From: a virus
Virus record (IMG/VR): IMGVR_UViG_3300043431_000467
Location: 1-43,730 of that record
Length of the DNA stretch: 43,730 nt
Direction: 5' to 3' (one strand)
Shown in pieces: positions 1 to 43,730 of this stretch. Both the position numbers and the translations under genes were made by a program. The notes beneath the pieces are model-generated. The model was not told where the DNA came from, did not search any database, and worked only from the letters and a program-made list of their open reading frames with translations. The stretch's first letter is position 1. Every line of letters begins with the position of its first letter.

Positions 1-185
1 GCGAGATCCTCGTCTTGTTCAAGGAAATGCAGGCTCTCGGCTGGGTCGAGAATTACGACCAGTTCAAGGCGGAGCTCGTGGTGCAGCGCGACCCCACCGA
101 CCAGAACCGAATCAACTGCCTGATCCCGCCCGACATCATCAACAACCTGTTGGTCACCGCGGCGTCCATCCAGTTCCGAAAGTAA
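1..185 (+). CDS. Phage tail sheath protein, C-terminal end (partial)
   Basis: Open reading frame entering from the left edge, read from base 3; 60 codons are visible, ending in TAA at 183-185. The fragment contains DQNRINCLIPPDIINNL followed by a short strand ending QFRK. This matches the closing segment of Mu gpL-type contractile sheath proteins, where an N-R-(L/I)-(D/N) turn precedes a PPDxVNxL helix and a final strand that integrates into neighbouring subunits. The next gene, three bases on, is the tail tube, the usual order in Mu-like tails. The rest of the gene lies outside the window. Confidence 0.8.
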   Translation, partial: EILVLFKEMQALGWVENYDQFKAELVVQRDPTDQNRINCLIPPDIINNLLVTAASIQFRK

Positions 186-188
186 TCC

Positions 189-548
189 ATGGCGAAAACC
201 ACTGGTACAGTCATTGTGCGCCGCGATGGGCAGTCCCTTCGCAGTAAGACCGGCAAGGCTACGATCATGCTCGGCGGCGTCGAGCGCGTCCCCGTCTTTG
301 CGGATGGCGGCATCGCCGGCTACGCCGAGAAGCCCGTCGCATCGAAAGTCACGCTCACCATCGTCCACGACTCGACTGTGGACTTGATTGCCATCTCTCG
401 CGACACGAATGTCTCGCTCGAGTTCGCCTGCGACTCCGGTCCGGTGTATCTCGTCGGCGGAGCGTTCCTCAGCAAGCCACCGGAGCTCAACGCGGGCGAG
501 GCGGACGTGCAGCTCGAGTACGAAGGCAACGCTACGATTCAGCGCTAA
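189..548 (+). CDS. Phage tail tube protein (Mu gpM-like)
   Basis: 119 codons, close to the roughly 118 of Mu gpM. The protein would polymerise into the inner tube through which DNA passes and around which the sheath contracts. Visible family features are an N-terminal strand beginning GTVIVRRDGQSLRSK, a central segment with the VTLTIVHDSTVDL pattern, and the C-terminal strand VQLEYEGNA typical of the Tail_tube family. It lies between sheath and tail assembly chaperone, as expected. Identification rests on length, order and sequence pattern. Confidence 0.85.
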   Translation: MAKTTGTVIVRRDGQSLRSKTGKATIMLGGVERVPVFADGGIAGYAEKPVASKVTLTIVHDSTVDLIAISRDTNVSLEFACDSGPVYLVGGAFLSKPPELNAGEADVQLEYEGNATIQR

Positions 549-571
549 CGCATAGCGCGGAGGAGGCTCCC

Positions 572-883
572 ATGAAATTTGTTCTGAAACGGCCGTTCAA
601 GTCGCCGATCGGCGCGCAGTCCCTGATCACCGAGGTCACGCTCCGCGAGCTACTCGCAGACGATGTGGTCGAAGGATTCAGCGCGGCGGAGAAGACCGCC
701 AAGCAGTTCCGTTCGATGATCGAGCGGACAGCCAGCATCCTGCCCGAAGAGCTCGGCAAGATGGGCGCGGCGGACTACCTTGAGCTGCAAGGCTTCGTGG
801 CCTACCAGTTGAACGGCGGCGACCCCGCCGCGTACGGCAAGGTCGATCCCGACCCAAAAGCTACCGCCACCCCCTCCACCTGA
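572..883 (+). CDS. Tail assembly chaperone, short form (Mu gp41-like)
   Basis: 103 codons with a strong ribosome site (GGAGGAGG about 5 bases before ATG). It resembles the short Mu gp41-type tail assembly chaperones: an N-terminal strand (KRPFKSPIG), a Leu/Asp-rich middle and an Ala/Pro-rich tail. Such proteins coat the tape measure protein during tail assembly and are not in the virion. Position between tube and tape measure supports this. The gene carries a perfect slippery heptamer near its end, so this is probably the non-shifted product of a frameshifted pair. Confidence 0.75.
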   Translation: MKFVLKRPFKSPIGAQSLITEVTLRELLADDVVEGFSAAEKTAKQFRSMIERTASILPEELGKMGAADYLELQGFVAYQLNGGDPAAYGKVDPDPKATATPST

Positions 884-1002
884 TTCAGGAGGTGGTGACG
901 GCGTTCAGCTGGACGCCTGACACGATCGGCAAACTGTCGCTGACCCGGCTCCGGTTCTGGGCTGGGATCGCCCAGGAAAAGCTGAAGCATTCGGTGCTAT
1001 AG
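572..1002 (+). CDS. Tail assembly chaperone, predicted -1 frameshift product
   Basis: If ribosomes slip by -1 at CCCAAAA (853-859), the first 96 codons of the chaperone are joined to a second frame that stays open to TAG at 1000-1002, giving about 143 residues. The extension reads through HPLHLIQEV, FSWTPDTIG and LRFWAGIAQEKLK. These have the aromatic and amphipathic character of the T-type extensions of GpG/GpGT chaperones, which recruit the tape measure protein. The second frame has no good start of its own and fills the gap before the tape measure gene. Frameshifting here is inferred, not shown. Confidence 0.65.
853..859 (+). promoter_or_regulatory. -1 ribosomal frameshift slippery heptamer CCCAAAA
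   Basis: Codons in the zero frame are GAC CCA AAA, so the heptamer C CCA AAA fits X XXY YYZ exactly and re-pairs as CCC AAA after a -1 slip. It sits 8 codons before the zero-frame stop, and the -1 frame is open on both sides of it. I did not identify a clear stimulatory structure downstream. Confidence 0.65.
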
Positions 1003-1008
1003 TTCACC

Positions 1009-2859
1009 ATGGCGAAGCCCACCCTTGCCGAGTTGCAGCTGCAGATTCAGATGCAGGGTATGGGCAAGCTTGCCCAGCTCACGGACGCACTCAAGCGTGT
1101 CGGCGGGGCAGAGATTCGTCGACAGATGGATGCGCAGGCACGTGCGCTGCTCGGAATAGAGCAGGCCGCATCCAAGGCCAACAAGCCCCTAGGTCTGTTC
1201 TCCGGAACGCTCGGGGGGATTGCGAAGTTCGGCCTCGCGGCGATGACGATCAAGCGCTCCTTCGAGTTCGTCGGCGGGGCTGTGTCGAACGCGCTCGACC
1301 CGCTCATCCGGTTCCAGCAGACGATGGCCCAGGTCCGCACCAAGGGCACATACACTGCGCGAGACACCGCCGATCTCGGCGAGTTCATGAAGCAGAATGT
1401 TCGAGAGGGCTCCCAGTTCGGAATCAACCAACAGGCGGAAGCGGCCGTCGATCTCGCAGCAAGCAATCTAAGCCCCGGCCAAGTCAAGGCCGTCATGCCG
1501 ACCGTGTTGCGGTTCTCCCAGGCCACGGGGGCGAGCACAGCTGAGTCGTCGAAGATGTTGACGAACGTCGCCAACATGTTTAAGACGGACCTGAGCGATC
1601 CGGTCGCAATCGAGAAGCTCGCGGCGCAGATCAACAAGGCCGCGAACATGTCGACGATCGGCGTGTCCGACATCTTCCACACGTTGAAGTACGTGGGCAC
1701 CCAGGCCGGCATCGCCGGCATGGACCCGGCTCAGGTCCTTGCCATGACGGCCATCCTCGGCAACCAAGGCATTGTTGCCAGCAAAGCCGGTACTGGCATG
1801 CGCAACCTGTTTGCCGCCACTACCCGCCCGCCGCGCCGCGGCAAAGTGGCTGCCGCACAGCTGGCAAGCATCGGCATGACCCAGAAGGACATTCAAGCGG
1901 GCTTCACGGATCTCCCGCGACTCCAAGAGGAGATCGGGCGGCGCATACAAGGCTGGCGCAAGGGCAAGGACGGCAAGTGGGTGCAGTCCGCTAAAGCCCT
2001 CTCGGCCGCCCAGGAAGCCGCATTCAACTCGATCCAGTACGGACAATACGGCTCTACGACCAGCGCCGTACTTACGCGTGCTGCTAGCTCGGGTGTCCTA
2101 GGAGAGATCACGCGCCGCAACATCAAGAAGAACGACGCGGGCGAGTGGGTCTTCGACTCCAAGAACGCCATCATCGAATTTCAGAAGGCAATCTCGGACA
2201 CCGGGGATTCGCTCAAAGAGACGTCCGAGATCATGGGCGAGCAGCTTGCGGGCCGCCTCGCCAAGGTTGATGCGAAACTTGAGTTGCTGAAGGTCACGAT
2301 GGGGGAGCGCTTCATCCCGCAACTCGAGAAAGCAATCGACTGGGCCGACAAAACTGCTGCGGCTGTCGAGAAGTGGGTGCGGCAGAATCCGGAAGCGATC
2401 AACCAATGGGGCCGCGCATTCGAGTCCCTCGGTATGGCCTTGTCTAACATGCAACCGGTTGTGGGCTGGCTCGCCGACAGGTTCGCAGACCTGGGTATGA
2501 TCTCCAAGCCTGTTACGCGTAAGGATGTATCTGTCGAGGATGACGCGAACGCCAAGAAGCAGTGGATCGACCAATGGGAGAAGCAGCACATAACCGGCTT
2601 CCTTACTCAGGGGCAGCGCCGCGAGGCGGCCGAAGAGGCTTACAGGCAAGGGCCAGGCAAGGCCGATGATCTAGAAACTGCACGCAAACGGCGAGCCCTC
2701 GAGAAGGGCGGTGGCGCGGAGAACGAGCTGTACGGCCAATCCCGCGTCGATCTTAGAATCCATCTCGACGATAACGGTAAGCTGCAAGCCTTCGTCGATA
2801 AGATGTCTAAGGGCGAGGGCGGGCCGGTCATGCGTACGCAGGTGACGAACGCGCTATGA
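1009..2859 (+). CDS. Tail tape measure protein
   Basis: 616 codons from ATG at 1009. The middle (about residues 120-290) has the TP901/PhageMin_Tail core seen in many tape measures: AAVDLAASNLSPGQVKAVMP, then QATGASTAESSKML, IGVSDIFHTLKYVGTQAGI and VLAMTAILGNQGI, ending in a GTGMRNLFAA turn. The C-terminal half is helical and charged. The length suggests a short tail (about 90 nm if 1.5 angstrom per residue applies). It follows the chaperone and overlaps the next gene by 4 bases. No lysozyme or peptidase domain was recognised in it. Confidence 0.9.
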   Translation: MAKPTLAELQLQIQMQGMGKLAQLTDALKRVGGAEIRRQMDAQARALLGIEQAASKANKPLGLFSGTLGGIAKFGLAAMTIKRSFEFVGGAVSNALDPLIRFQQTMAQVRTKGTYTARDTADLGEFMKQNVREGSQFGINQQAEAAVDLAASNLSPGQVKAVMPTVLRFSQATGASTAESSKMLTNVANMFKTDLSDPVAIEKLAAQINKAANMSTIGVSDIFHTLKYVGTQAGIAGMDPAQVLAMTAILGNQGIVASKAGTGMRNLFAATTRPPRRGKVAAAQLASIGMTQKDIQAGFTDLPRLQEEIGRRIQGWRKGKDGKWVQSAKALSAAQEAAFNSIQYGQYGSTTSAVLTRAASSGVLGEITRRNIKKNDAGEWVFDSKNAIIEFQKAISDTGDSLKETSEIMGEQLAGRLAKVDAKLELLKVTMGERFIPQLEKAIDWADKTAAAVEKWVRQNPEAINQWGRAFESLGMALSNMQPVVGWLADRFADLGMISKPVTRKDVSVEDDANAKKQWIDQWEKQHITGFLTQGQRREAAEEAYRQGPGKADDLETARKRRALEKGGGAENELYGQSRVDLRIHLDDNGKLQAFVDKMSKGEGGPVMRTQVTNAL

Positions 2860-4112
2860 GCTACCTCACAGAAAAGCAGCCGGCATCCTTTCGCGGCGTC
2901 AAGTTCTTCGTCAAGAGCCACAAGACCGCGGTCGGGCGAAAGACGGCGATCTACGATTTGCCGTTCAATGACAACGGCGCCGCGACTCTCGATCTAGGCC
3001 GCCGCCCGCGCAAGTACAAGATCTCCGCAGTCCTGATCGAGACGCCAGACTCGTCGTTGCGAGAGCAGCGCGAAGCGCTCGTCGCCGCGCTCGAGACCCG
3101 CGACCCCGGCCTGCTCATCCATCCAGTCTACGGCCGCAAGCAGGTCGTAGCTCAAGGCGAGATCGATCTGATCGAGTCGACCGACAACGGCGGCGTGCTC
3201 GAGGTCGAGTTCGAGTTCATCGAGGCCCGCGAGAAGCCCGGAGCGGCCCCCAAGCCTTCACCCAAAGCTGACATGATCTCGAAGGCGCGCAAGTTGCGCA
3301 CCGATGCCGGCACGACGATGAGTGGCGGATTCCTGACGAACGTTCCCGATCTTGTTGCCGCCTCGAACCTGCGCACGCTCGATGAAGTGTTGACTGATCT
3401 CACGCGCATCAACCAGCTCGTAGGGGCTGCGCTCGCCGTACCTACGCACTTCGCACATCAGATTACCGCCATCACGAATCAGGCCGCAGAGCTGCTGAAC
3501 ACGCCGCAGGCGCTCTACAACACGCTCGACTCTCTATTCGCGGAGCTGCTGCAGGCCGTGCGCACGATCACGGATGCTTCTGTGACCTCTGCCGGCGGGC
3601 TCGTGACACTCGACTCGATCACCGTCGCGCTCGCGGCCCTGGGTTCGGATGCTCCTACCCCTGTCGGCGAGACGCAAACCCGCATCGACGAAAGGACGAA
3701 CCATGCTCTGCTTCTGCAAACTCTGCGTGCAAGTGCGTTGGGCAGTCTTGCAGAAACCGTCGCCGAAACGACGTTCTCTGCCGCTAACGACGCACGAAAT
3801 GTACTTCAGACCCTGACCGACGCCCTGGCCTCTGTCAGTGACGAGCCGATCGCAGACATCGAGCCCGAGCAGCAACTCGTCGAGTCGTTGCGGGACGTCG
3901 CGGCATCCTCGGTCGTGCGTCTCGGCAGCGTGGCCGGCACGCTTGCCGAGCTGACCACATACACCCCACCGACCACGTTGCCTGCGATTGTAGTGGCCTA
4001 CAATCTGTACGCGGATGCGACCCGCGAGGATGAGATCCTCGAGCGCAACCCCCATGTTGTGCACCCGCTCTTCGCCCCGGGGCGCACTGACCTTGAGATT
4101 CTAGCCCCGTGA
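2856..4112 (+). CDS. Mu gpN-like tail protein with DNA circularisation N-terminal domain
   Basis: 418 codons; ATG overlaps the tape measure stop (ATGA). The first 125 residues carry the DNA_circ_N signature: ASFRGVKFFVKSHKTAVGRK, YDLPFNDNG, then a Gly-Arg-Arg-Pro-Arg-Lys strand and an ALVAALETRDPGLLIHP helix ending in the VYGRKQV strand. In Mu this protein (gpN, gene 43) is part of the tail tip; 'DNA circularisation' is a historical name. The remaining 290 residues are Ala/Leu/Thr-rich helices without a recognised domain. Confidence 0.85.
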   Translation: MSYLTEKQPASFRGVKFFVKSHKTAVGRKTAIYDLPFNDNGAATLDLGRRPRKYKISAVLIETPDSSLREQREALVAALETRDPGLLIHPVYGRKQVVAQGEIDLIESTDNGGVLEVEFEFIEAREKPGAAPKPSPKADMISKARKLRTDAGTTMSGGFLTNVPDLVAASNLRTLDEVLTDLTRINQLVGAALAVPTHFAHQITAITNQAAELLNTPQALYNTLDSLFAELLQAVRTITDASVTSAGGLVTLDSITVALAALGSDAPTPVGETQTRIDERTNHALLLQTLRASALGSLAETVAETTFSAANDARNVLQTLTDALASVSDEPIADIEPEQQLVESLRDVAASSVVRLGSVAGTLAELTTYTPPTTLPAIVVAYNLYADATREDEILERNPHVVHPLFAPGRTDLEILAP

Positions 4113-5212
4113 GTGCTCCTGATCAGATAACGCTGGTCGTGGACGGCGGGGAATACGCGGGCTGGACGCAGGTCGAGGTCGAGCGCAGTCTCGACCGCTT
4201 CGCGCACAGCTTCGACTTGGGGTATACGGACCGCTGGTCGGAGGCGGCCGAGCCGTGGCCGATCCGCCCCGGTGCCACCGCCCAGATCAAGTACGGCAAC
4301 CACATTCTGATCACGGGCTGGGTGGAGGCGAGCACCTTCTCTGCGCAGCGCGATCAGTGGCGCCTGCGCGCGCAAGGGAGATCACTAACCGGAGATCTCG
4401 TCGACTGCGGCGCCCTGTTCAAGACCGGGAACTGGAACAACCAGTTGCTCCGCGTGATCGCGAATGACCTGGTTTCACCGTACGGTTTGGCGGTCGAGCT
4501 GTCGATTCCCGACAACGAACCAATCCGCAAGTTCACGATCGAGATGGGAGAGTCGGTCTACGATGCGCTCGAAAGGCTGGTTCGAAACCGCGGGTACCTC
4601 CTCACTACGCACCCTGACGGCAACGTTGGGCTGGTTCGTCTACTTGACTTTGTGGGTAGTGTGGTTGACGTTCCGGTGGCTGACGCGATCTCGCGAGAGT
4701 TGAGCGAGGATGCCCAGGACGTTCACAGCCAGTACCTCTTGCGTTCGCAGAGCTACGGCGCCGACGAGTTCGGCCTAGACGTCACGATCCGTCGCACGTT
4801 CGACGGTCAGCCGGTCACCGGCATGCGCCACAGGCCGATGGTGCTGTTCGCCGACAGCGCGAGCTCGCGCGAAGAGCTAGCCAAGCGCGCAGCCTGGGAG
4901 CAGAACGTGCGCTACGGCCGCTCGGTGCGAGTGCGCTACTCGCTGCCTGGGGTTCTGGACCCCCGCGGCCTGCCGTGGGCCCCGGCCACTCAATACTTCG
5001 TCAACGATCCAGTCCTAGGTGTCGAGGAACGCTTGCTGTGCGTTCGCGCGAACGTGCACGTCGACAACGGCGATCTGATGACCGACATCGAGCTCACCCG
5101 CCCCGAGGCGTTCAGCCTGCTAGAGTGGCCGGATGATGTGCTGAATCTGGTGACGAAACTGGGCCGGCCCAAGGTCAAACGGGCCCCGATCAAGAAGCAG
5201 CAGAAGGGCTGA
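4109..5212 (+). CDS. Baseplate hub protein (Mu gpP/gp44-like)
   Basis: 367 codons starting at GTG 4109, which overlaps the upstream stop as GTGA. The protein has the gpP-type opening (strand ITLVVDGGEYAGW, then VEVERSLDRFAHSFDLGYTD) and a middle segment with VYDALERLVRNRGYLL and HPDGNVGLV, as in the trimeric hubs related to T4 gp27 and P2 gpD. The C-terminal part contains RRTFDGQPV and the ITDxxLTRPEAF-like end. It is followed at once by the gp45-type spike, its partner in the central baseplate. Confidence 0.85.
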   Translation: MSAPDQITLVVDGGEYAGWTQVEVERSLDRFAHSFDLGYTDRWSEAAEPWPIRPGATAQIKYGNHILITGWVEASTFSAQRDQWRLRAQGRSLTGDLVDCGALFKTGNWNNQLLRVIANDLVSPYGLAVELSIPDNEPIRKFTIEMGESVYDALERLVRNRGYLLTTHPDGNVGLVRLLDFVGSVVDVPVADAISRELSEDAQDVHSQYLLRSQSYGADEFGLDVTIRRTFDGQPVTGMRHRPMVLFADSASSREELAKRAAWEQNVRYGRSVRVRYSLPGVLDPRGLPWAPATQYFVNDPVLGVEERLLCVRANVHVDNGDLMTDIELTRPEAFSLLEWPDDVLNLVTKLGRPKVKRAPIKKQQKG

Positions 5213-5736
5213 TGGATCTCACACTCCTACGCAAGCTGCGCACGCGCCTGCAGAACCTTGTCCTGCGCGCCAGCGTAGACCGGCCCGGCGTTCGCTACCA
5301 GATCTCGTCGGTCGGCGACAGCTCGCGCTCCGATATCGAGCACATGGAGCCGCAGGGGCTGCACTTCCGCGCGCCCGTCGGAGCGGAAGGGATTGAGCTG
5401 CGCCCGGGGGCGGTACCTGAGAACTCGGTGCTTGTCTGCGCGCAGGGCGACGCTCCGGAGGATGTTCTGCTTCCGGGGGAGGGCGGCCTGCACTACCTCG
5501 GCACCTTCAAGGTGTTCTGCAAGAGCAACGGGGAAGTGCATCTGGCCGGCGGTACCGGCGCCGCGGACTTCGTAGCGCTGGCCCAGAAGGTAGACACGGC
5601 CATCGCGAACATCCGGACCTACATCAACGCGCACGTACACCCTGGAGTTACCACTGGCGGTGGGGTGACCGGGGCTGTGGCCGTGCCGCTCGGGGCGCAG
5701 GCTAGTAGCGCAGCCGCGAAAGTGAAGGCCACCTGA
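5212..5736 (+). CDS. Baseplate assembly/spike protein (Mu gp45-like)
   Basis: 174 codons; ATG shares its A with the preceding TGA. The first 120 residues fit the Phage_Mu_Gp45 family: a helix with LQNLVLRASV, then DIEHMEPQGLHFRAPVGAEG, a VLVCAQGD strand and an LPGEGGLHYLG loop. In Mu gp45 forms the trimeric membrane-piercing spike. The C-terminal end has a helix TAIANIRTYINAHVHP and an HVHP-GVTTGGG loop like the histidine-rich tips of phage spikes, which can bind metal; metal binding is inferred. Confidence 0.85.
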   Translation: MDLTLLRKLRTRLQNLVLRASVDRPGVRYQISSVGDSSRSDIEHMEPQGLHFRAPVGAEGIELRPGAVPENSVLVCAQGDAPEDVLLPGEGGLHYLGTFKVFCKSNGEVHLAGGTGAADFVALAQKVDTAIANIRTYINAHVHPGVTTGGGVTGAVAVPLGAQASSAAAKVKAT

Positions 5737-6158
5737 TGCAAGATTTCCAGATTTCAGTCGACAGTAGCGGCCACCTCTACACGGACGACTCGTTGCGGAC
5801 GATGGTTCTGGTGGCGCTGTATACGTGGCGCCGCGGCGATCCTGAGGATGACGTGCCGGACGTGAGCGATCTCAAGGGCTGGTGGGGCGACTCGTACCCG
5901 GAGGTCGAGGGCGACCAGATGGGCAGCAAGCTATGGCAACTTCAGGGCATGAATGCCGGCCCGACCGCCATCGAGTTCGCGAAACAGGAAATTGCAGCGG
6001 CACTGCAATTCATGCTTGATGATGGCATCGTCGACAATGTACTAGCCGAGATTGAAATCTCTGGCACGACTCTTGCAGGCAGGATTGGGCTCCTGCGGCC
6101 GAGAGACCCCAATGTGCTGTGGGTCCCGCTATGGGACGCCACCCTCGCCATCGGCTGA
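5736..6158 (+). CDS. Baseplate wedge protein (Mu gp46-like)
   Basis: 140 codons; its ATG shares a base with the upstream TGA. It has the pattern of gp46/GP46-family proteins: an early LRTMVLVALYTWRRGDPEDD segment, the GWWGDSYPEVEGDQMGSKLW core (the conserved Gly-Trp-Trp-Gly-Asp and Gly-Ser-x-Leu-Trp elements), and a C-terminal strand region. These are the GpW/gp25-like wedge components placed next to gp47. Gene order supports the call. Confidence 0.88.
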   Translation: MQDFQISVDSSGHLYTDDSLRTMVLVALYTWRRGDPEDDVPDVSDLKGWWGDSYPEVEGDQMGSKLWQLQGMNAGPTAIEFAKQEIAAALQFMLDDGIVDNVLAEIEISGTTLAGRIGLLRPRDPNVLWVPLWDATLAIG

Positions 6159-6176
6159 TCTGCTACAGTCGGAGCA

Positions 6177-7238
6177 GTGGCCCCCACTATCCCCACACTT
6201 AAGCAGATCATCGATCGCTGCCGGGCTGACTTCCGGATCGAGGCGGGGATCGACGTGCTTCGCCGCTCTATCGAGTCGGCGCTTCTTCGCGTGCAAGCGA
6301 AGGTAAGCCAGGCACAGTACGCCTATCTGAAGTATGTCGATGACCAAGGCTTTGCGGACACGGCCGACGAAGCCCACTTCTGGCGGCATGCGGCCCTAAG
6401 GGGATTGTACCAGAAGCCCGCCACCCCCGCCACCGGAACGGTTCGGTTCACCGGCGTCGACGGTACGACCATCCCGCTGGGCACCGGGGTCGCCCGTTCT
6501 GACGGCGCCACCTACACCACTACGGAGGAGCTCGATATCGGCTCGACCACGACCGGTCTCGTGGACATTGCCGTCGAGGCCGACGAGGTCGGGACCGCCA
6601 GCAACTGCGAGGACGATCAGCCGCTTACCCTGTCCGGCTCGATCGTAGACGTAGACTCGGACGCTACTTGGCTCGTCACCCTCGTCGACGGCACCGACGA
6701 CGAGACGCAAGCTGACGGCCTGTCGCGCTACCTCGATGATGTTTCGAATCCGGACTCCGGAGGCGGAACCGCCGGGGACTACGAACGCTGGGCGCTCGAG
6801 GTTTCCGGCGTCACGCGCGCCTGGGAGACCGCGGTTGGCGGTAACGAAGTTGCGGTCGCCTTCGTCCGGGACAACGACGGAACAGGCTCCGCCATCCTTC
6901 CAGACGCGGGGGAGCGTACAGAAGTCGAAGACTACGTCCAGGAACTTGCCCCGATTACGGTCGACGTCAGCGTTACGACCCTGACCGCGCTGACTGTCAA
7001 CGTCACGCTGACCGCGCTCTCCCCGAACACGACCGCCGTACAGAATGCAGTCACGGCCGAGCTTGAGGACTTCTTCGCGACCTACCCCGAGCCGGGCCTG
7101 CAGATCGAGTTGTCGCAAATCGAGGCCGCGATCAGCGCTGCGACCGGCGAAACCTCGCACGTGATGAGTGTGCCCGCGGCCGCCGTCGCACCCACCTCTA
7201 CTCAACTGCCGATCCTCGGCACGATCACTTTCCCGTAA
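6177..7238 (+). CDS. Baseplate J-like wedge protein (Mu gp47-like)
   Basis: 353 codons from GTG 6177; GGAG lies only two bases upstream, so the start is less certain than the gene. Features of the Baseplate_J family are visible: an N-terminal helix region with QAQYAYLKYVDDQGFADTAD, the strand pair GTVRFTGVDGTTIPLGTGV, then GGGTAGDYERWALEVSGVTRAW about midway (the PGGTxxDYxxWAxxVxGVxxA motif), and a C-terminal VTLTALSPNT domain. This wedge protein connects the baseplate periphery to the hub. Confidence 0.9.
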   Translation: MAPTIPTLKQIIDRCRADFRIEAGIDVLRRSIESALLRVQAKVSQAQYAYLKYVDDQGFADTADEAHFWRHAALRGLYQKPATPATGTVRFTGVDGTTIPLGTGVARSDGATYTTTEELDIGSTTTGLVDIAVEADEVGTASNCEDDQPLTLSGSIVDVDSDATWLVTLVDGTDDETQADGLSRYLDDVSNPDSGGGTAGDYERWALEVSGVTRAWETAVGGNEVAVAFVRDNDGTGSAILPDAGERTEVEDYVQELAPITVDVSVTTLTALTVNVTLTALSPNTTAVQNAVTAELEDFFATYPEPGLQIELSQIEAAISAATGETSHVMSVPAAAVAPTSTQLPILGTITFP

Positions 7239-12676: not shown

Positions 12677-13196
12677 CCCGTTCAAGTGGAAGGCCGCGCC
12701 CACCCCTTCCGATCCAGATCACGTAACGATCCTGGAGGGGTGGGACCGGCTGAACATTACGTCCTTCGCGTGCGAGGAACTTGCGCGCTGGACGCATGGC
12801 AAGAGCCGCATTGTGACGATGAACCACCAGTGTCGCGAGTCGTTTCTAGGTCTATGGGCCGCGTGGGAGAAAGACGGCGCGCTTGAGCGGTTCAAGTCCG
12901 ACTACACGCCAGCGCCGACCCGCGCGATTGTACACGACGGCTGGGCCGGAGCATACAACCCACGGTACAAGCGCGGCGTCGCACACGATCAGAACCCGAA
13001 CCACCTCAGCAACCATGCGAGCGGCCATGCGTTTGATATCGCCGCACAGCGCTACCCGCTCGGCCGCGAGATTCCCGGCCCGGATCTGATCCACCTTCTT
13101 GTTCCGATCGCCAAGTCCTACGGCTGGCGTTGGGGCGGCGAGTTCACGCGCCGCGATGGCATGCACTTCCAGCACGAAACGAGTCCATTCACATGA
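12651..13196 (+). CDS. Endolysin, peptidase M15-type
   Basis: 181 codons from TTG 12651, overlapping the lipoprotein gene by 26 bases; no better in-frame start was seen. The zinc-peptidase signature of M15 is clear: SNHASGHAFDI (the SxHxxGxAxD motif with His and Asp ligands, about residues 120-130) and DGMHFQ near the C-terminus with the third ligand His. Such enzymes cut peptide bonds in the peptidoglycan stem. No signal peptide is visible, so export would depend on a holin. It overlaps the next gene by ATGA. Confidence 0.8.
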   Translation: MPQSSNKPSPFKWKAAPTPSDPDHVTILEGWDRLNITSFACEELARWTHGKSRIVTMNHQCRESFLGLWAAWEKDGALERFKSDYTPAPTRAIVHDGWAGAYNPRYKRGVAHDQNPNHLSNHASGHAFDIAAQRYPLGREIPGPDLIHLLVPIAKSYGWRWGGEFTRRDGMHFQHETSPFT

Positions 13197-13609
13197 GCGC
13201 AACGACTACAGCCGCTACGGCGGTCATCGACGATATCGAAGCCCACACCGGCGGCGTAACTGCAAACGATCTGAACGTTGCGATGTCGCGCGTGGTTGTG
13301 GAGTTCGCTGAGTCGGGCGTGACTGCTAGCGAGTCCGGTGGTGCGACCGGCGCCGCAACCGCCGTAGCGATGACCACCGCAAGCGCTACGCTTATCGCGG
13401 CGAACGCTAGCCGAGTCGGACTCATGATCTACAACCCATTGGCGGTAACGCTGTACGTGCGTTTCGAGAATGCGGACGCGGCTACTGTTCAGTCCTTTTG
13501 GGTTCTGCCCGGCGAGACGTACGAGATGCCTCGTCGATACTACACCGGGATCGTGAAGGCTGCAACCGCCTCCAGCTCCGGCAGCGTCTTTGTCACGGAG
13601 ATCGTGTAA
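13193..13609 (+). CDS. Small phage structural protein (unknown, beta-rich)
   Basis: 138 codons from ATG 13193 (ATGA overlap with the endolysin). The C-terminal half, with ATLIAANASRVGLMIYNPLA, LYVRFENADA and YEMPRRYYTGIVKA, has the pattern of small beta-rich phage proteins whose strands read as 'nANRxGLxIYN...LYV...YExPxxYTG'. Their exact role is not established; they occur among tail or head decoration genes. Placed after the lysis genes and before a glycine-rich protein. Confidence 0.6.
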   Translation: MSATTTAATAVIDDIEAHTGGVTANDLNVAMSRVVVEFAESGVTASESGGATGAATAVAMTTASATLIAANASRVGLMIYNPLAVTLYVRFENADAATVQSFWVLPGETYEMPRRYYTGIVKAATASSSGSVFVTEIV

Positions 13610-14631
13610 TGCCTATTCATGCTCCTCGCGGGCCCGCGCGCATCGTCGATCACTACGACACCGCCGGCACCACGGCCGTCACGACACGTACGGGCTATCA
13701 AGTTGTTGAGCTACTGCTACGTCCCGGCGCCCAAGGCGGAGGAGGAGGCGGGGGCGGAGGTATCGGCCAAACATCTGCTACGGGCGGGGGAGGCGGAGGA
13801 GCGGGTAACGGTGGCGGTGGCGGTGGGGCCTCTATGCTGCGTGTGCCCTGCTCGATCGCACCGGGCACCGTGCTCACTCTGGTGCGCGGTGCGGGGGGCA
13901 CGGGTGGTGCGGGGGGTACGTCGGGCGCCAACAATTCTGTGGCGGGGTCTGTCGGGTCCCCGTCGTATGTGACGACACAAGCTGGAGTCCACATCGCGAA
14001 GACCGCGGGCCTTGTAACTATAGCCGGCAACGGGGGGAACAAAGGCAACAACGCATCTGCGGGCAACGGGGGTACCGCAGGTAGCGGGCAGTCTCTTACA
14101 GCAGCTAACACGCGACACTTTGGCCTGAACCTCCCGAACGCTGACGTTACCGGCAACGCAGGAGGGGCAGGGGGCGCAAGCAGCAACCCCGGCAATTCGC
14201 CCACTACGCCAAATCTACCAACCGGGGCCGTTCTCGCCTTCCCGTCCACCTACGCCACTGTCCCGAGCAACGCAGCGGGTGGTGCCGCAGACACCACCGC
14301 GGGCGGGGGCGGGGCCGGGGCATCCGGAGGTACCGGCGGACCCGGAGATGAAGTCGACTACGGCCTCGGAATCGCTCCGCTGACTGGTGCCGGTTCCGGT
14401 GTGGGTGGCGCTGGCGGCGCTGGCGGCGCTGGCTCTGTAGCAGGCACTGGCACGACGGGCTCGAACGGCAGTAATGGCGCGACTGGGTCCCACGGCAGAG
14501 GCGGTGGCGGTGGCGGTGGCGCGGGCGGCGGTGGCGCTGGGCTTTCCGCGGGCGGGGCAGGTGGTGTTGGCGGCACAGGCGGCGACGGCAGCCCAGGCTA
14601 CATCGGCCTGGTCTACGCGCGCCTGAGCTGA
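13609..14631 (+). CDS. Glycine-rich tail fibre-like protein
   Basis: 340 codons from ATG 13609, sharing a base with the preceding TAA. After about 35 residues (TGYQVVELLLRPGAQ) there are long poly-glycine tracts, a short GTVLTLVRGAGGTGG strand, and further GGxGGxGG runs to the end, closing with a YIGLVYARLS strand. This is the architecture of Gly_rich-type phage tail proteins, in which glycine tracts form polyglycine-II sandwiches bearing receptor-binding loops. It is the last gene of the plus-strand late operon and overlaps the opposing array gene by 19 bases. Confidence 0.6.
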   Translation: MPIHAPRGPARIVDHYDTAGTTAVTTRTGYQVVELLLRPGAQGGGGGGGGGIGQTSATGGGGGGAGNGGGGGGASMLRVPCSIAPGTVLTLVRGAGGTGGAGGTSGANNSVAGSVGSPSYVTTQAGVHIAKTAGLVTIAGNGGNKGNNASAGNGGTAGSGQSLTAANTRHFGLNLPNADVTGNAGGAGGASSNPGNSPTTPNLPTGAVLAFPSTYATVPSNAAGGAADTTAGGGGAGASGGTGGPGDEVDYGLGIAPLTGAGSGVGGAGGAGGAGSVAGTGTTGSNGSNGATGSHGRGGGGGGGAGGGGAGLSAGGAGGVGGTGGDGSPGYIGLVYARLS

Positions 14632-14786
14632 TCCCGGAGCGGATCGCAGAGCTGGTCGTAGAGCTGGTCGCAGAGCTGGGCGTCGAGCTGGGCGGAGAGC
14701 TGGTAGTAGATCTGGCGATCGAGCGGGGCCCAGAGCTGGCGATCGAGCTGGGCCCAGAGCTGGTAGAGTGGTTTGTCAGGATTCAT
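14613..14786 (-). CDS. QL-repeat micro-protein, left array gene 1 (distal)
   Basis: 57 codons. From ATG 14786 the protein is built almost entirely of a four-residue repeat: PLYQLWAQLDRQLWAPL, then YYQLSAQLDAQLCDQL and further DQL units to RDQLRRA. Repeating CAG-CTC codons give a 12-base DNA periodicity. It starts inside the end of the neighbouring member and is convergent with the glycine-rich protein gene. No family recognised. Confidence 0.65.
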   Translation of the reverse strand: MNPDKPLYQLWAQLDRQLWAPLDRQIYYQLSAQLDAQLCDQLYDQLCDPLRDQLRRA

Positions 14787-14943
14787 GGTTGTGCGCTGCG
14801 CAGAGCTGATTGCGCGTCTGAGTGTACAGCTGCCAGTAGAACTGCCGGTAGAGCTCGGCGTAGATTTGGGCGTTGAGCTCGGCGGAGAGCTGGCGCACGA
14901 GCCGGGCACAGAAGAGCTGTTGGCGTGATCGGTCAGGGTTCAT
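14776..14943 (-). CDS. QL-repeat micro-protein, left array gene 2
   Basis: 55 codons from ATG 14943, which overlaps the stop of the upstream member (ATGA). It begins MNPDRSRQQLF and continues with more degenerate units (RQLSAELNAQIYAELYRQF, WQLYTQTRNQL), ending CAAHNHES. It shares the MNPD start with its downstream neighbour but lacks the LREQ ending; its last 11 bases overlap that neighbour. Confidence 0.6.
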   Translation of the reverse strand: MNPDRSRQQLFCARLVRQLSAELNAQIYAELYRQFYWQLYTQTRNQLCAAHNHES

Positions 14944-15113
14944 GGCTGTTCTCGGAGCTGGACCGTCAGCTTGATGTATATTTCAGCGCCTAGCGCCCAG
15001 TCGAAGTGACTGTATAGCTCGTCGCGCAAACGCCAATGCAACTGCTGTTGAAACTGGGCGTGCAGCCGATCCTCGAATCCGCCGCATGCAGCTGTGGCTC
15101 TGAAGCGCTTCAC
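14940..15113 (-). CDS. QL-repeat family micro-protein, left array gene 3 (diverged)
   Basis: 57 codons if started at GTG 15113, chosen because it overlaps the upstream stop as GTGA and gives the family's usual length. The repeat is weak (DRLHAQFQQQLHWRL, DELYSHFDWAL), but the protein ends in LTVQLREQP, the signature shared with right-array members, and its end codes the conserved junction CTCCGAGAACAGCCATGA. Confidence 0.55.
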   Translation of the reverse strand: MKRFRATAACGGFEDRLHAQFQQQLHWRLRDELYSHFDWALGAEIYIKLTVQLREQP

Positions 15114-15289
15114 GTCGACACCCACTTCAGGTAGAACGACTCGCGTCCGCACCAGAGAATCCGCTGAGCGATGAGTTTTCCAGGCATCCCGCCCGAGAAA
15201 ATACAACGAACGGTTTCGCTCGACAGGTGGCGTTCGATCGCTCGTCGCAGCCTGCGTTGCCTGTTCGCTTTACGTTTTCGGTTCGTCAT
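15110..15289 (-). CDS. Small basic protein within the left array
   Basis: 59 codons from ATG 15289 to TGA 15112-15110. The N-terminus is very basic (TNRKRKANRQRRLRRAIE), which could bind nucleic acid; the rest (CIFSGGMPGKLIAQRILWCG) has no repeat. It overlaps genes on both sides (20 and 4 bases), which supports translation. Family unknown. Confidence 0.5.
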   Translation of the reverse strand: MTNRKRKANRQRRLRRAIERHLSSETVRCIFSGGMPGKLIAQRILWCGRESFYLKWVST

Positions 15290-15446
15290 GCTGTAGTGCC
15301 TGGAGCAAGGGACTGTAAAACTCCAGAAATAGTTGATTCCCTACGCTGGTATGCATCTCGTCGAACAGCCGCTGATTTATGCGGGGGTCGGCAGCATAGT
15401 GGATATCTAGTCCCATCTGCGTCCGTAGCAATTCAGGTTCGCGCAT
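15270..15446 (-). CDS. Small protein in the left array, possible diverged family member
   Basis: 58 codons from ATG 15446 to TAA 15272-15270; its start lies inside the last codons of the neighbouring repeat gene. The sequence (LLRTQMGLDIHYAADP, NQRLFDEMHTSVGNQLF, FYSPLLQALQ) has no clean QL repeat but keeps the N-Q-L and Q-A-L spacing seen in diverged members. Membership is inferred from length and position. Confidence 0.5.
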   Translation of the reverse strand: MREPELLRTQMGLDIHYAADPRINQRLFDEMHTSVGNQLFLEFYSPLLQALQHDEPKT

Positions 15447-15624
15447 GGCGTAGCTGGTCGTCGAGCTGGGCGTAGAGCTGGTCGTAGAGCTGGCCGAAGA
15501 GCTGGGTCCAGAACTGGGCGTGGAGCTGGGCGTAGAGCTGGTCGTCGAGCTGGGCGTGGAGCTGGGCGTAGAGCTGATCCCAGACCGGCTCGTTGAGCTG
15601 GCGGGCGAGCCGGTCTGGGATCAT
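15433..15624 (-). CDS. QL-repeat micro-protein, left array gene 6
   Basis: 63 codons from ATG 15624, overlapping the upstream stop (ATGA). After MIPDRLARQLNEPVW the protein is a nearly perfect tetrad repeat: DQLYAQLHAQLDDQL, YAQLHAQFWTQLFGQL, YDQLYAQLDDQL, ending RHART. A longer open frame reaches back to 15846, but that part is the antisense or other-frame shadow of the neighbouring genes. Confidence 0.7.
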   Translation of the reverse strand: MIPDRLARQLNEPVWDQLYAQLHAQLDDQLYAQLHAQFWTQLFGQLYDQLYAQLDDQLRHART

Positions 15625-15782
15625 CGCCGTTCTCGGAGCTGATCGTGCAGCGGTGTCCAGCTGCACACCCAGCGCGGGGCGAGTAGTTGGGTGTGGAGCT
15701 GGGGGCGAAGCTGGTCGTCGAGCCGGCAGAGCCGGGCGTCGAGCTGGACCCAGAAATCGCGGTAGCGCTCGTGCGCGTTCAT
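15621..15782 (-). CDS. QL-repeat micro-protein, left array gene 7 (promoter-proximal)
   Basis: 53 codons from ATG 15782 to TGA 15623-15621. Starts MNAHERYRDFW like right-array members (MNAH), then VQLDARLCRLDDQLRPQL, a non-repeat middle, and the family ending HDQLRERR. Its ATG overlaps the stop of the metallopeptidase-like lipoprotein gene, so it is translationally coupled to that gene. Confidence 0.65.
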   Translation of the reverse strand: MNAHERYRDFWVQLDARLCRLDDQLRPQLHTQLLAPRWVCSWTPLHDQLRERR

Positions 15783-16231
15783 GGCGCCTCGCGGATGTCA
15801 CGGCCCCGGTACGGAAACCAGATCGCGAGCTTCTCGTGCGCGCCATCTAGCCCGACGTCCGTACAAGCTCCGAACCAGTGCCGGAGCTCGTGCTCGATCG
15901 TGGCGTTGCCGTAGAACGAGTTGTCCCACTGCTGATCGACAAAGATCGTGTTGCCTTGCAGGCAGCCGTAGAGTTCGTTGCTGCCGCCGCACGTGATCTG
16001 TAGTTTGTTCTGCGGGAGCATCTCGTAGTGGATAGTCCACATCGCGCGCTTGCATCCGACGTTGATGTCTGGCAAGCCCTGTGCGAGCCAGCGCTGCCTG
16101 AGGTCGACCGCGTGGTCGAACAGGTTCACAATCGGCTCGCTGAAGTTGTCACTACACGAGGTAGCGCCGCATGACACAAATAGACACAGAACTAGGGGTA
16201 GGTGTTTCATCGGGGGATCCATCGCAGTCAT
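15779..16231 (-). CDS. Secreted or lipid-anchored protein with an HExxH zinc-peptidase motif
   Basis: 150 codons from ATG 16231, chosen for the GGAGG seven bases upstream; ATG 16210 is an alternative that gives a shorter signal peptide. A hydrophobic N-terminal segment (HLPLVLCLFVSC) followed by cysteines 16, 21 and 26 looks like a lipoprotein or secretion signal. HELRH at residues 114-118, in a helix preceded by NATIE, is the gluzincin-type HExxH motif; the third ligand is not evident (His 132 is possible). Eight cysteines in total suggest a disulphide-stabilised exported protein. It heads the left QL array. Function is inferred only. Confidence 0.55.
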   Translation of the reverse strand: MTAMDPPMKHLPLVLCLFVSCGATSCSDNFSEPIVNLFDHAVDLRQRWLAQGLPDINVGCKRAMWTIHYEMLPQNKLQITCGGSNELYGCLQGNTIFVDQQWDNSFYGNATIEHELRHWFGACTDVGLDGAHEKLAIWFPYRGRDIREAP

Positions 16232-32544: not shown

Positions 32545-32768
32545 CCGGGTACCCCCCGGCCTGCTCGGTTTTTCATAGTGGGGTCAGTTCCGGGCCCGGC
32601 CTGGTGCCCGACAGCAAGAGTGGCAACTATAAAATATAGCTGGTTTGACAGTTGGGGGAAGAGTGAGTCCTCGACTTCGGAGATTATGCACTTGCGCACT
32701 TCGAGGTTCAATAGGAACTGCAGATGCCGGGCCTCGCAGAAGAGTTTGTCATCATGTATCGGGATCAT
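32541..32768 (-). CDS. Possible small protein of 75 residues
   Basis: From ATG 32768 to TGA 32543-32541, overlapping the five-HTH gene by ATGA. A longer open frame runs through the 13-bp repeats and is not credible. The sequence has DKLFCEARHLQFLLNLE, KCIISEVEDSLFPQLSNQL and a hydrophobic YFIVATLAVG; its last residues come from a 33-base duplication of the next gene's start. Weak evidence. Confidence 0.35.
   Translation of the reverse strand: MIPIHDDKLFCEARHLQFLLNLEVRKCIISEVEDSLFPQLSNQLYFIVATLAVGHQAGPGTDPTMKNRAGRGVPG
32545..32577 (-). repeat. Duplicated start region of the five-HTH gene
   Basis: On the minus strand ATGAAAAACCGAGCAGGC occurs at 32577 and again at 32544, exactly 33 bases apart. 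The downstream copy is the real start; the upstream copy is in the same frame as the small ORF ending at 32541. Confidence 0.75.
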
Positions 32769-32819
32769 AGCTGGGTGCTTGTGCTGTGGCTCTGTGACTG
32801 GTGCAACCTTAGGTAGACC

Positions 32820-32930: not shown

Positions 32931-32959
32931 TGCCCCAGGCACACCCCCCATCCCGCCCC

Positions 32960-39113: not shown

Positions 39114-39284
39114 ATGCTACTTTCCGACGCCTGGCAGCTCTACGCCCAGCTCTACGCCCAGCTCCACACCCAGCTCTCCGTCCAGCTCTACGGCCAGCTC
39201 TACGGCCAGCGCCACGCCCTCTCCGTCCAGCTCTACGGCCAGCTCTACGACCAGCTCAACGCCCAGCTCCTAAAACAGCCATGA
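39114..39284 (+). CDS. QL-repeat micro-protein, right array gene 1
   Basis: 56 codons from ATG 39114. After LLSDAW it is a run of four-residue units: QLYAQLYAQLHTQLSVQL, YGQLYGQRHALSVQLYG, QLYDQLNAQLLKQP. CAGCTC codons dominate. No ribosome site; the upstream promoter geometry suggests a leaderless mRNA. It overlaps gene 2 by ATGA. Confidence 0.7.
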   Translation: MLLSDAWQLYAQLYAQLHTQLSVQLYGQLYGQRHALSVQLYGQLYDQLNAQLLKQP

Positions 39285-39460
39285 ACCTATTCGCCCAGAA
39301 CCTAAGAATGATAAGAGTTCTAGCCGAACGGCTAGATCCTGATAATTTGTACTGGGAGCTGCACCATCAAGTCGATCTGCCGCTGTGTGATGTACTGTAC
39401 AGGCGACTCTACCATGAACTGTATTTTTCGATCGAGGATCAGCTCCGAGAACAGCGATGA
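39281..39460 (+). CDS. Diverged QL-family micro-protein, right array gene 2
   Basis: 59 codons. NLFAQNLRMIRVLAERLD, LYWELHHQVDLPLCDVLY, RRLYHELYFSIEDQLREQR. The tetrad spacing survives in places but the DNA is not repetitive, so this member shows protein-level divergence under apparent constraint. Shares the LREQ ending. Confidence 0.7.
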   Translation: MNLFAQNLRMIRVLAERLDPDNLYWELHHQVDLPLCDVLYRRLYHELYFSIEDQLREQR

Positions 39461-39624
39461 ACGCGCACCAACTCGACGACCAGCTCTTCGACCAGCTCGG
39501 CGCCCAACTCCACGCCCAGCTCCGCACCCATCTCTCCAACCAGCTTCTCTACGCCCAGCTCTACGCCCAGCTCTACTCCCAACTCCACGCCCAGCTCCAC
39601 GCCGGGCTCCGAGAACAGACATGA
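39457..39624 (+). CDS. QL-repeat micro-protein, right array gene 3
   Basis: 55 codons. NAHQLDDQLFDQLGAQLHAQ, LRTHLSNQLLYAQLYAQ, LYSQLHAQLHAGLREQT. MNAH start is shared with gene 6 and with the proximal gene of the left array. Confidence 0.7.
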   Translation: MNAHQLDDQLFDQLGAQLHAQLRTHLSNQLLYAQLYAQLYSQLHAQLHAGLREQT

Positions 39625-39729
39625 ACACAAGTCAGCTCCACGCCCAGCTCTCCGCCCAGCTCGACGCCCAGCTCCACGCCCAGCTCTGGGCCCAGCTCTA
39701 CGCCGAGCTCTACGCCCAACTCTACGCCC
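39591..39729 (+). repeat. 139-bp duplication, copy 1
   Basis: Matches 40086-40224 with two mismatches by my reading (within 39651-39653). Spans the end of gene 3 and the first half of gene 4. Confidence 0.85.
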
Positions 39730-39809
39730 AACTCTACGACCAGCTCCACGACCAGCTCTACGCCCAGCTCCACGACCAGCTCTGCGATCAGCTCCGAGAA
39801 CAGCCATGA
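39621..39809 (+). CDS. QL-repeat micro-protein, right array gene 4
   Basis: 62 codons, the most regular member: NTSQLHAQLSAQLDAQLHAQ, LWAQLYAELYAQLYAQL, YDQLHDQLYAQLHDQL, ending LREQP. Its first half is a near copy of gene 7 (139-base duplication). Confidence 0.72.
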   Translation: MNTSQLHAQLSAQLDAQLHAQLWAQLYAELYAQLYAQLYDQLHDQLYAQLHDQLCDQLREQP

Positions 39810-39934
39810 ATACAGACAAGCTCTGCGCCCGGCTCGACGGCCAGCTCTACGCCCAGCTCTACGCCCAGCTCTCCGCCCGGCTCGCCGACCAGCTCTACGC
39901 CCGGCTCGCCGACCAGCTCCGAGAACAGCCATGA
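39806..39934 (+). CDS. QL-repeat micro-protein, right array gene 5
   Basis: 42 codons, the shortest. NTDKLCARLDGQLYAQLYAQ, LSARLADQLYARLADQL, REQP. ATGA overlaps on both sides. Confidence 0.68.
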   Translation: MNTDKLCARLDGQLYAQLYAQLSARLADQLYARLADQLREQP

Positions 39935-40119
39935 ACGCGCACCGGCTCGAAGCCCAACTCTGCAACCTGCTCGAAGTCGAGCTCGCGATCGAACTCTCTT
40001 GGCGGATTCACGTCGAACTCTGGGCCAAGCTCTGCCCGCAACTCTATGACGAGCACGGCGCCCAACTGCGCGCCCAGCTCGAGGTCCAGCTCCACGCCGG
40101 GCTCCGAGAACAGACATGA
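39931..40119 (+). CDS. Diverged QL-family micro-protein, right array gene 6
   Basis: 62 codons. NAHRLEAQLCNLLEVELA, IELSWRIHVELWAKLCPQLY, then AQLRAQLEVQLHAGLREQT. The centre is diverged, the ends keep the family pattern. Confidence 0.68.
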   Translation: MNAHRLEAQLCNLLEVELAIELSWRIHVELWAKLCPQLYDEHGAQLRAQLEVQLHAGLREQT

Positions 40120-40224
40120 ACACAAGTCAGCTCCACGCCCAGCTCGACGCCCAGCTCGACGCCCAGCTCCACGCCCAGCTCTGGGCCCAGCTCTACGCCG
40201 AGCTCTACGCCCAACTCTACGCCC
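40086..40224 (+). repeat. 139-bp duplication, copy 2
   Basis: Same as 39591-39729, offset 495 bases; spans the end of gene 6 and the first half of gene 7, so genes 4-6 look like a duplicated block boundary. Confidence 0.85.
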
Positions 40225-40316
40225 GGCTCTGGGCCCAGTTCTACGAACATCTCAGTAATTTCTACTACCCCACCGTCGAGTTCCGCCAACCCCCAATCGT
40301 TGCACGCCGCGCTTGA
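40116..40316 (+). CDS. QL-repeat micro-protein, right array gene 7
   Basis: 66 codons. Begins as gene 4 (NTSQLHAQLDAQLDAQ), then LWAQFYEHLSNFYYP and a non-repeat end REFRQP-like tail (VEFRQPPIVARRA). It lacks LREQ because its 3' part runs antisense into the large terminase gene for 65 bases; perhaps a truncated copy. Confidence 0.65.
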   Translation: MNTSQLHAQLDAQLDAQLHAQLWAQLYAELYAQLYARLWAQFYEHLSNFYYPTVEFRQPPIVARRA

Positions 40317-43438: not shown

Positions 43439-43635
43439 CAGTTCAGGACCGCGCCCGGCTTCTGCGCATCTTCGAGGACCCCCTCGATCTGTAGAAACAC
43501 CACAGAGAATTGGGGGTACGCAACGACCGCGATCGGCGCTAGAACTGTGGCTTCTTCGTCTTCGTAGAAGCCGACGGGCTTTTCGCCCTCAGGATCCGCT
43601 GCTTGGAGGAGTTTGATCAGCTCGTTTGTGGTCAC
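43438..43635 (-). CDS. Unknown small protein upstream of terS
   Basis: 65 codons from GTG 43635, GAGAGG seven bases upstream. TTNELIKLLQAADPEGEKPV, then a beta segment APIAVVAYPQFSVVFLQIEG. This 'LIxxLQxxDPExxV' opening occurs in small phage proteins of unknown function. The last about 95 bases of the window hold no gene I can support. Confidence 0.6.
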   Translation of the reverse strand: MTTNELIKLLQAADPEGEKPVGFYEDEEATVLAPIAVVAYPQFSVVFLQIEGVLEDAQKPGAVLN

Positions 43636-43730
43636 GCGTGCGCCTCTCGTACATATCTAGCACGATCGAGAGACGCGGGTGCCGAAGCGGATCCGGATGA
43701 ATGTTAGGGTAGTATTTCGCGAACAGCCGC

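What the first reader, a model, noticed from the sequence alone, without database searches (positions are those of the whole stretch)
14613..15782. Second array of the same family at the far end of the leftward operon
Five recognisable members (14613, 14776, 14940, 15433, 15621) plus two small ORFs (15110, 15270) form an unbroken overlapping chain on the opposite strand, 24 kb from the right array. Starts (MNPD, MNAH) and the endings LREQP/LRERR are shared with the right array. Two distant copies on both flanks of the early region suggest function or a recombination role at the early/late boundaries.
Basis: partly seen in the sequence, partly recalled or inferred. Interest (0 to 1): 0.85.

Follow-up and report, generated by a model that had tools for sequence, protein, structure and literature searches.

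The report
Phage arrays of four-residue-repeat mini-proteins
This phage carries rows of tiny overlapping genes for short proteins built from a four-amino-acid repeat, which appear to be the detached, fast-changing repeat part of a widespread but unstudied phage gene cassette, possibly used to outmanoeuvre bacterial defences.

Summary
The array is real and coding. On the minus strand, 14613-15782, lie seven overlapping small ORFs; five are clear family members, a sixth (15270) is a diverged one, and 15110 is not. They share a 4-residue repeat (xxQL, 12 nt), start MN and C-terminus LREQ with the right array (seven units, 39114-40316, plus strand). Q and L codons are conserved while the other two residues vary, and diverged units keep a hydrophobic residue at every fourth position. 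IMG/VR contig G001 overlaps both window ends at 99-100% identity. So the same phage (about 57 kb) also has two more arrays and a DUF6745 gene without internal repeats. Across 48 clusters of viral DUF6745 loci, 25 have the repeat inside DUF6745, 17 have it as free-standing units nearby, none both; the tree needs at least 7 switches. A second small gene accompanies DUF6745 in 43 of 48 clusters. The arrays are best read as the split-out repeat component of this cassette. Its function is unknown; the only tested analogue, Tweety gp54, is a counter-defence protein tuned by tetrapeptide copy number. The 'early/late boundary' reading is weakened: arrays occur at four places.

The parts
15621..15782 (-). 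left array unit Lf1 (53 aa, MNAHERY...DQLRERR); weak 4-residue phasing
15433..15624 (-). left array unit Lf2 (63 aa, 12 Q-L pairs)
15270..15446 (-). left array unit Lf3 (58 aa), diverged member: hydrophobic residue at every 4th position, Q and terminal motif lost
15110..15289 (-). small basic ORF in the chain, not a member
14940..15113 (-). left array unit Lf5 (57 aa, GTG start, ends LREQP); 11 hydrophobic 4th positions in a row
14776..14943 (-). left array unit Lf6 (55 aa, MNPDRS)
14613..14786 (-). left array unit Lf7 (57 aa, MNPDKP), convergent with the ORF ending at 14631
39114..39284 (+). right array unit R1 (56 aa)
39281..39460 (+). right array unit R2 (59 aa), DNA repeat lost, 4-residue phase and LREQR kept
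39457..39624 (+). right array unit R3 (55 aa)
39621..39809 (+). right array unit R4 (62 aa), modelled by AlphaFold2 as one helix
39806..39934 (+). right array unit R5 (42 aa)
39931..40119 (+). right array unit R6 (62 aa), diverged
40116..40316 (+). right array unit R7 (66 aa), 3' end overlaps the convergent terminase gene
1..6323 (+). left end shared with IMG/VR contig G001 (reverse of its bases 6323-1)
   Evidence: 6000 b with 1 mismatch, 905 b at 100%
43495..43730 (+). right end shared with the far end of G001 (19864-19629); G001 bridges the window ends and carries DUF6745 and two more arrays
   Evidence: 236 b, 2 mismatches

Best explanation
The arrays are operons of free-standing tetrad-repeat mini-proteins: the repeat component of a phage cassette made of DUF6745, a small conserved 'VTHSETG' protein and a 4-residue-repeat part. 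In other phages that part is an insert inside DUF6745; here it has been split into about 20 separate, translationally coupled units in four arrays, with one repeat-less DUF6745 in the genome. Shown: coding selection, mutual exclusion of internal and free-standing repeat, repeated switching on the tree, conserved second gene, turnover of arrays by 12-bp and whole-unit indels. Inferred: the units act in trans with DUF6745, standing where the internal repeat stands. Inferred more weakly: the complex is a counter-defence or similar host-interaction factor whose target range is set by repeat number and by the two variable residues of each tetrad, so that many units of different length and sequence form a ready-made repertoire, as copy number tunes Tweety gp54. 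My split: cassette membership about 0.85, action in trans with DUF6745 about 0.6, counter-defence about 0.3.
For: Same phage: G001 overlaps both ends of the window and carries DUF6745 (PF20530, E 1.2e-30), its small neighbour and two arrays. Internal XOR free-standing: 0 of 25 clusters with an internal repeat have free units, 17 of 23 without do (after moving L411 by hand on the evidence; Fisher 2.4e-8, 1.5e-6 with complete ORFs only). The class without the repeat lacks the same stretch between two landmarks (30-86 against 68-168 residues in 27 proteins). Tree: at least 7 (internal) and 8 (free) changes forced by well-supported branches; close relatives of opposite type share the core motif, including this phage (L454, free QL) next to L453 (internal QL) (motifs). 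Second gene in 70 of 79 loci, 43 of 48 clusters, always same strand. Selection: Q-L codons pN .052 / pS .286, variable codons pN .563 / pS .296 in the window. Coupling: 31 of 44 neighbouring units overlap by exactly 4 nt. Turnover: L430 vs L431 differ by 0.1% mismatches and one 1-nt indel outside arrays, and inside by no mismatch but a 12-nt and a 194-nt indel. Functional precedent: Tweety gp54 (PMC9262239 section 14; PMC8549241 passage).
Against: Tweety gp54 shares no detectable homology with DUF6745, so the functional link is analogy only. No defence or known function was found for DUF6745 or its neighbour (Pfam, PADLOC, PHROGs, NCBIfam). No complex was modelled. In L392 and L086 the variable codons do not show pN above pS (.544/.583.411/.570), L394 and L410 are near equal, and L408/L410 and L382/L383 show no faster change inside arrays. 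L086 (5.6 kb) and L321 (20.8 kb) have arrays but no DUF6745 in the fragment. Six of 48 clusters have neither form. Fisher's test treats related loci as independent. Repeats evolve by recombination, so pN/pS is only indicative.
Confidence: 0.55

Rival explanations
1. DNA-level element: the 12-bp repeats serve as recombination, replication or binding sites at ends of transcription units, and the ORFs are a by-product of a stop-free repeat.
For: Both arrays in the window lie at convergent gene ends; regular units are nearly open in other frames too; arrays recombine.
Against: Repeat DNA differs among phages while the amino-acid pattern is kept; Q-L codons pN far below pS; diverged units keep phase with stops in other frames; two further arrays are not at convergent ends; tie to DUF6745.
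Confidence: 0.05
2. Neutral or selfish expansion: slippage-prone small ORFs that multiply without use to the phage.
For: Strong length and copy-number turnover in some pairs; some units look decayed (two short units without a start in the QL frame at L009 13856-13985).
Against: Purifying selection on Q-L, shared start and end motifs, ATGA coupling, and mutual exclusion with the internal repeat over at least 7 switches.
Confidence: 0.08
3. Structural or assembly role: the units are helical or beta-rich rods, for instance assembly scaffolds, and variable residues tune packing among themselves rather than a host target.
For: AlphaFold2 models a unit as one long helix (pLDDT 96); a 4-residue period can also fit extended or stacked beta structure (hydrophobic power at 4.0 or 2.0, not 3.5-3.6); the L086 array lies next to a terminase-like gene, the right array next to terminase.
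Against: DUF6745 loci are not tied to virion genes: the only conserved neighbour is the VTHSETG gene; DUF6745 is rare (3 of 299 genomes of one phylum, the centre genome included).
Confidence: 0.14
4. Specificity spacer: as with TAEL repeats of EcoR124I HsdS, the tetrads are a helical ruler that sets distance and rotation between two binding domains, and DUF6745 acts on nucleic acid or a restriction enzyme.
For: One 12-bp TAEL repeat is just over one helical turn and changes specificity (PMC3874165, passages); internal repeats sit between two confidently modelled domains.
Against: Free units are not joined to the domains, so they cannot be a covalent ruler; PDB matches of the DUF6745 model are weak (Foldseek best E 0.31; Z 4.0 or less).
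Confidence: 0.1

Closest known systems
Mycobacteriophage Tweety gp54 (tetrapeptide-repeat counter-defence protein)
   Same: 4-residue repeat with a 12-bp unit, two fixed and two variable residues, third codon positions fixed, copy number varying between phages; presumed non-essential by its authors (PMC2884959).
   Different: Repeat is AA[GWQ][SY], inside one protein; no homology with DUF6745; no free-standing units described.
DUF6745 (PF20530) proteins with internal xxQL/xxQV/xxSL/xxAT repeats
   Same: Same tetrad repeat; close relatives of opposite architecture share the core motif.
   Different: Here the repeat is outside the protein, as many separate genes.
TAEL repeats of EcoR124I/II HsdS
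   Same: 12-bp unit coding just over one helical turn whose number changes specificity (PMC3874165 passages).
   Different: Two or three copies inside one subunit of a host restriction enzyme, no arrays of genes; no homology shown.
Bordetella phage BMP-1 bbp36 VR2 (as told in PMC2884959)
   Same: Variable-number short repeat in a dispensable phage gene.
   Different: 24-bp element inside one gene; sequence not compared here.

Membership tests
DUF6745 cassette, repeat component | DUF6745 (PF20530 over cut-off) in the same genome | tested here: met
   0 matches in the window itself, but G001, joined to both window ends by overlap, has one at 107.9 bits
DUF6745 cassette, repeat component | repeat absent from DUF6745 when free units are present | tested here: met
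   L454/L009 DUF6745 has no internal tetrad repeat
DUF6745 cassette, repeat component | VTHSETG neighbour gene on the same strand | tested here: met
   L009:11413-11766; 39 nt downstream of DUF6745 by the tblastn hit (row L454)
DUF6745 cassette, repeat component | physical contact of free units with DUF6745 | not testable with these tools
   needs experiment or complex prediction
Tweety gp54 family | sequence homology of the unique N- and C-terminal domains | tested here: not met
   hhalign of the DUF6745 alignment with gp54: probability 0.1%; gp54 hits phrog_3416, our proteins do not
Tweety gp54 family | tetrapeptide repeat of 12 bp with variable copy number | tested here: met
Tweety gp54 family | counter-defence activity tuned by copy number | not testable with these tools
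   host unknown, needs plaque assays
Diversity-generating retroelement variable region | reverse transcriptase in the genome | tested here: not met
   RVT_1: 0 of 6 records, both parts of this phage included; the other four are fragments of other phages
HsdS TAEL spacer | repeat within an S subunit between two target-recognition domains | tested here: not met
   units are free-standing; only a weak PADLOC match (18.9 bits) of the repeat of L166 DUF6745
Coiled coil (heptad) proteins | hydrophobic period near 3.5 | tested here: not met
   power at 3.5 and 3.6 is below that at 4.0 in all 22 ORFs tested; most peak near 4.0 or 2.0
Pfam or PHROGs family of the units | match over cut-off | tested here: not met
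   no Pfam hit over its cut-off for 10 proteins; best PHROGs E 0.0056 for 9

The most novel reading that the evidence does not exclude
A previously undescribed kind of phage system in which a hypervariable repeat domain has been broken up, several times independently, into a multigene repertoire of mini-proteins that assemble in trans with one shared DUF6745 partner. Each infection would deliver many variants at once, a combinatorial counter-defence kit that changes by 12-bp slippage and unit shuffling.
Probability: 0.3. Interest if true: 0.92.

Novelty: new variant of a known kind. Interest (0 to 1): 0.75.

Why it matters
DUF6745 is a domain of unknown function, and the one phage tetrapeptide-repeat protein with a tested role that I found (Tweety gp54) is a counter-defence factor whose mechanism is called obscure in PMC8549241. 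The finding ties small phage ORFs, easily dismissed as low-complexity noise, to a defined cassette, shows that evolution repeatedly swaps an internal repeat for an array of free mini-genes, and gives a direct test: do free units complement a DUF6745 whose internal repeat is deleted? It also shows diversification at two of four residues on a conserved scaffold, without a reverse transcriptase as far as searched.

Tried and rejected
Tried without result: near-identity DNA search of 12 kb in phage records (no match); tblastn of a unit in phage records (no match, low-complexity filter on, query not cut at the exact unit ends); Rfam (0 matches); Pfam, PHROGs, PADLOC and NCBIfam for units, DUF6745 and the VTHSETG protein (no function); PDB by sequence (0 matches) and by fold (unit: 0 matches at E 10; DUF6745 model: best E 0.31, no Z over 4.0; domains not folded alone); MoxR/vWA ternary conflict systems as a frame for DUF6745 (one locus, L261, has a bpMoxR-like ATPase at 28.1 bits, but clustering of flanking ORFs found no such conserved neighbour; PMC7159879 holds none of the repeat terms searched).

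Considered and rejected: DGR; a shared DNA-level site (repeat DNA differs); a role tied to convergent ends (two arrays are elsewhere). An early reading of mine that the phage lacks DUF6745 was wrong: the gene lies outside the window.

Literature searches that found no description of DUF6745, of the free-standing arrays or of these repeat strings: (open-licence PMC only). Papers: PMC2884959 passages; PMC9262239 passage and section 14; PMC8549241 passage; PMC3874165 passages; PMC7159879 and PMC7824862 term searches only.

Counting choices: one search found 119 relatives and kept 80 (79 loci); grouping at 80% identity gave 48 clusters. The script called L411 'internal' because its stop-to-stop frame runs upstream of the ATG; I moved it to free-standing after (before the move: 26 internal, 16 free, 6 neither). 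Eight internal clusters are cut off at a contig end. L454 is this phage and counts as one of the 17.
Full report
Observation. The chain of small ORFs on the minus strand at 14613-15782 is real. Seven ORFs overlap by 4, 14, 20, 4, 4 and 11 nt and the first overlaps its upstream neighbour by 4 nt. Five are plain members of the family of the right array; a sixth (15270-15446) is a diverged member; 15110-15289 is not one. The right array has seven units at 39114-40316, all joined by ATGA. BLAST within the window gives 71-90% identity between arrays.

Coding. The regular units are a 12-nt DNA repeat that is nearly open in several frames, so an open frame alone proves little. Three facts do. First, units that have lost the DNA repeat keep L, I, V, M or F at every fourth residue: runs of 9 (R2), 9 (R6), 11 (Lf5) and 8 (Lf3), reached by 13, 1, 0 and 15 of 20,000 residue shuffles. 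Two of the ten ORFs tested fail this: Lf1 (1,650) and L009 13114-13317 (937). Second, R2 is open only in the coding frame among forward frames (6 and 4 stops in the others). Third, in the window's tetrads the Q and L codons have pN .052 against pS .286, while the two variable codons have pN .563 against pS .296. The same contrast holds in most other arrays, strongly in L382 (.483/.065) and L430 (.558/.179) for the variable codons; it fails in L392 and L086 and is weak in L394 and L410.

The same phage outside the window. L009, found by a DNA pattern, belongs to IMG/VR contig G001 of 19,864 bases. Window 324-6323 matches G001 6000-1 with one mismatch, window 1-905 matches without any, and window 43495-43730 matches the last 236 bases of G001 with two mismatches. 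G001 therefore bridges the two ends of the window; the arithmetic length is about 57 kb. The part outside the window holds a Mu-type portal gene, an array of four units (L009 9696-10367), a DUF6745 gene (10439-11377; PF20530, E 1.2e-30), a 118-residue gene, dUTPase and a second array (13114-14134) with two short units that have no start in the right frame. So this phage has four arrays and about 20 units, and the arrays are not confined to early/late boundaries.

The cassette. Many phage DUF6745 proteins, and some bacterial ones, carry long internal tetrad repeats. A search of viral contigs gave 79 DUF6745 loci, 48 clusters at 80% identity of the C-terminal part. Twenty-five clusters have the repeat inside DUF6745 and none of these has free-standing units; of 23 without it, 17 have free-standing units nearby, up to 16 in one locus, and 6 have neither (one cluster, L411, moved by hand). 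Fisher's exact test gives 2.4e-8, or 1.5e-6 if only complete internal ORFs count. In an alignment of 27 proteins the repeat lies between the same landmarks and is missing from the short class. A tree of the C-terminal domains, which leaves out the repeat, needs at least 7 changes for 'internal' and 8 for 'free-standing' on well-supported branches. Opposite types that lie close on the tree share the core motif: L414 and L416 (AT), L454 (this phage) and L453 (QL), L404 and L457 (QV), L383 and L390/L395 (QL), L411 and L433 (QL) (motifs read). A small protein with a VTHSETG-like stretch sits beside DUF6745 in 70 of 79 loci and 43 of 48 clusters, always on the same strand; no other neighbour is conserved to that degree.

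Turnover. L430 and L431 are near-identical phages: outside arrays 0.1% mismatches in 9,113 aligned bases and one 1-nt indel; inside arrays no mismatch in 1,937 bases but a 12-nt and a 194-nt indel, the latter about one unit. L422/L427 and L409/L410 differ far more inside arrays (19.6% and 22.1%) than outside (0.5% and 2.8%), though some of this may be misalignment of non-matching units; L408/L410 and L382/L383 show no such contrast. Consecutive units overlap by exactly 4 nt in 31 of 44 cases, one locus per cluster.

Structure. AlphaFold2 gives unit R4 as one helix, residues 3-59, mean pLDDT 96, and the internal repeat of L166 as long helices, mostly at pLDDT 45-75, between confident N- and C-terminal domains. 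I hold the helix as unproven: hydrophobic periodicity is 4.0 or 2.0, not 3.5-3.6, which does not suit a usual coiled coil and leaves room for a beta form. No solved structure resembles DUF6745 by sequence or clearly by fold.

Mechanism. Best supported is that the units replace the internal repeat and act with DUF6745 in trans. What the complex does is inferred by analogy. In Tweety gp54 the number of tetrapeptide repeats tunes counter-defence against prophage defence systems (PMC9262239 section 14; PMC8549241), and its 12-bp unit also varies at first and second codon positions with fixed third positions (PMC2884959). In EcoR124 one 12-bp TAEL repeat shifts and rotates two domains (PMC3874165). 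Gp54 is not homologous to DUF6745, so this is 'works like', not 'is a'.

Novelty. Searches of open-licence papers found no mention of DUF6745 or of free-standing tetrad arrays. The repeat kind is known from Tweety; its split into multigene arrays tied to DUF6745 appears not to be described in what I could search.

Noticed in passing
window 38840-38867 and 38907-38934: Two copies of a 28-bp palindrome (one perfect) 67 nt apart, 0.2-0.3 kb upstream of the right array; its 22-bp core occurs nowhere else in the window (one further 3-mismatch copy beside it) or in L009; a candidate operator.
   Followed up: partly
window 40252-42876: Terminase large subunit interrupted by an intein with LAGLIDADG and Hint similarity near its N-terminus, ahead of the terminase domains.
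   Followed up: partly
L336:2011-2349 and L009:11413-11766: Small conserved VTHSETG protein, no Pfam family, partner gene of DUF6745 in 43 of 48 viral clusters.
   Followed up: partly
window 1-6323 and 43495-43730 with G001: Two separate IMG/VR records overlap at both ends and are parts of one phage.
   Followed up: yes
window 15779-16177: ORF directly upstream of the left array with an HExxH-like stretch (IEHELRH), no Pfam or PHROGs hit.
   Followed up: no
L428 5986-6879: DUF6745 without called repeat keeps about two tetrads (ASVRASVGAS) at the insertion site, perhaps a collapsed repeat.
   Followed up: no
L086 3749-4733: Array of tetrad mini-genes right after a terminase-like gene in an AT-rich phage fragment without DUF6745.
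   Followed up: partly
window 32541-33044: Minus-strand ORF with a tandem repeat of about 12 residues (RRFTTKVYYEGLL), unrelated to the tetrads.
   Followed up: no
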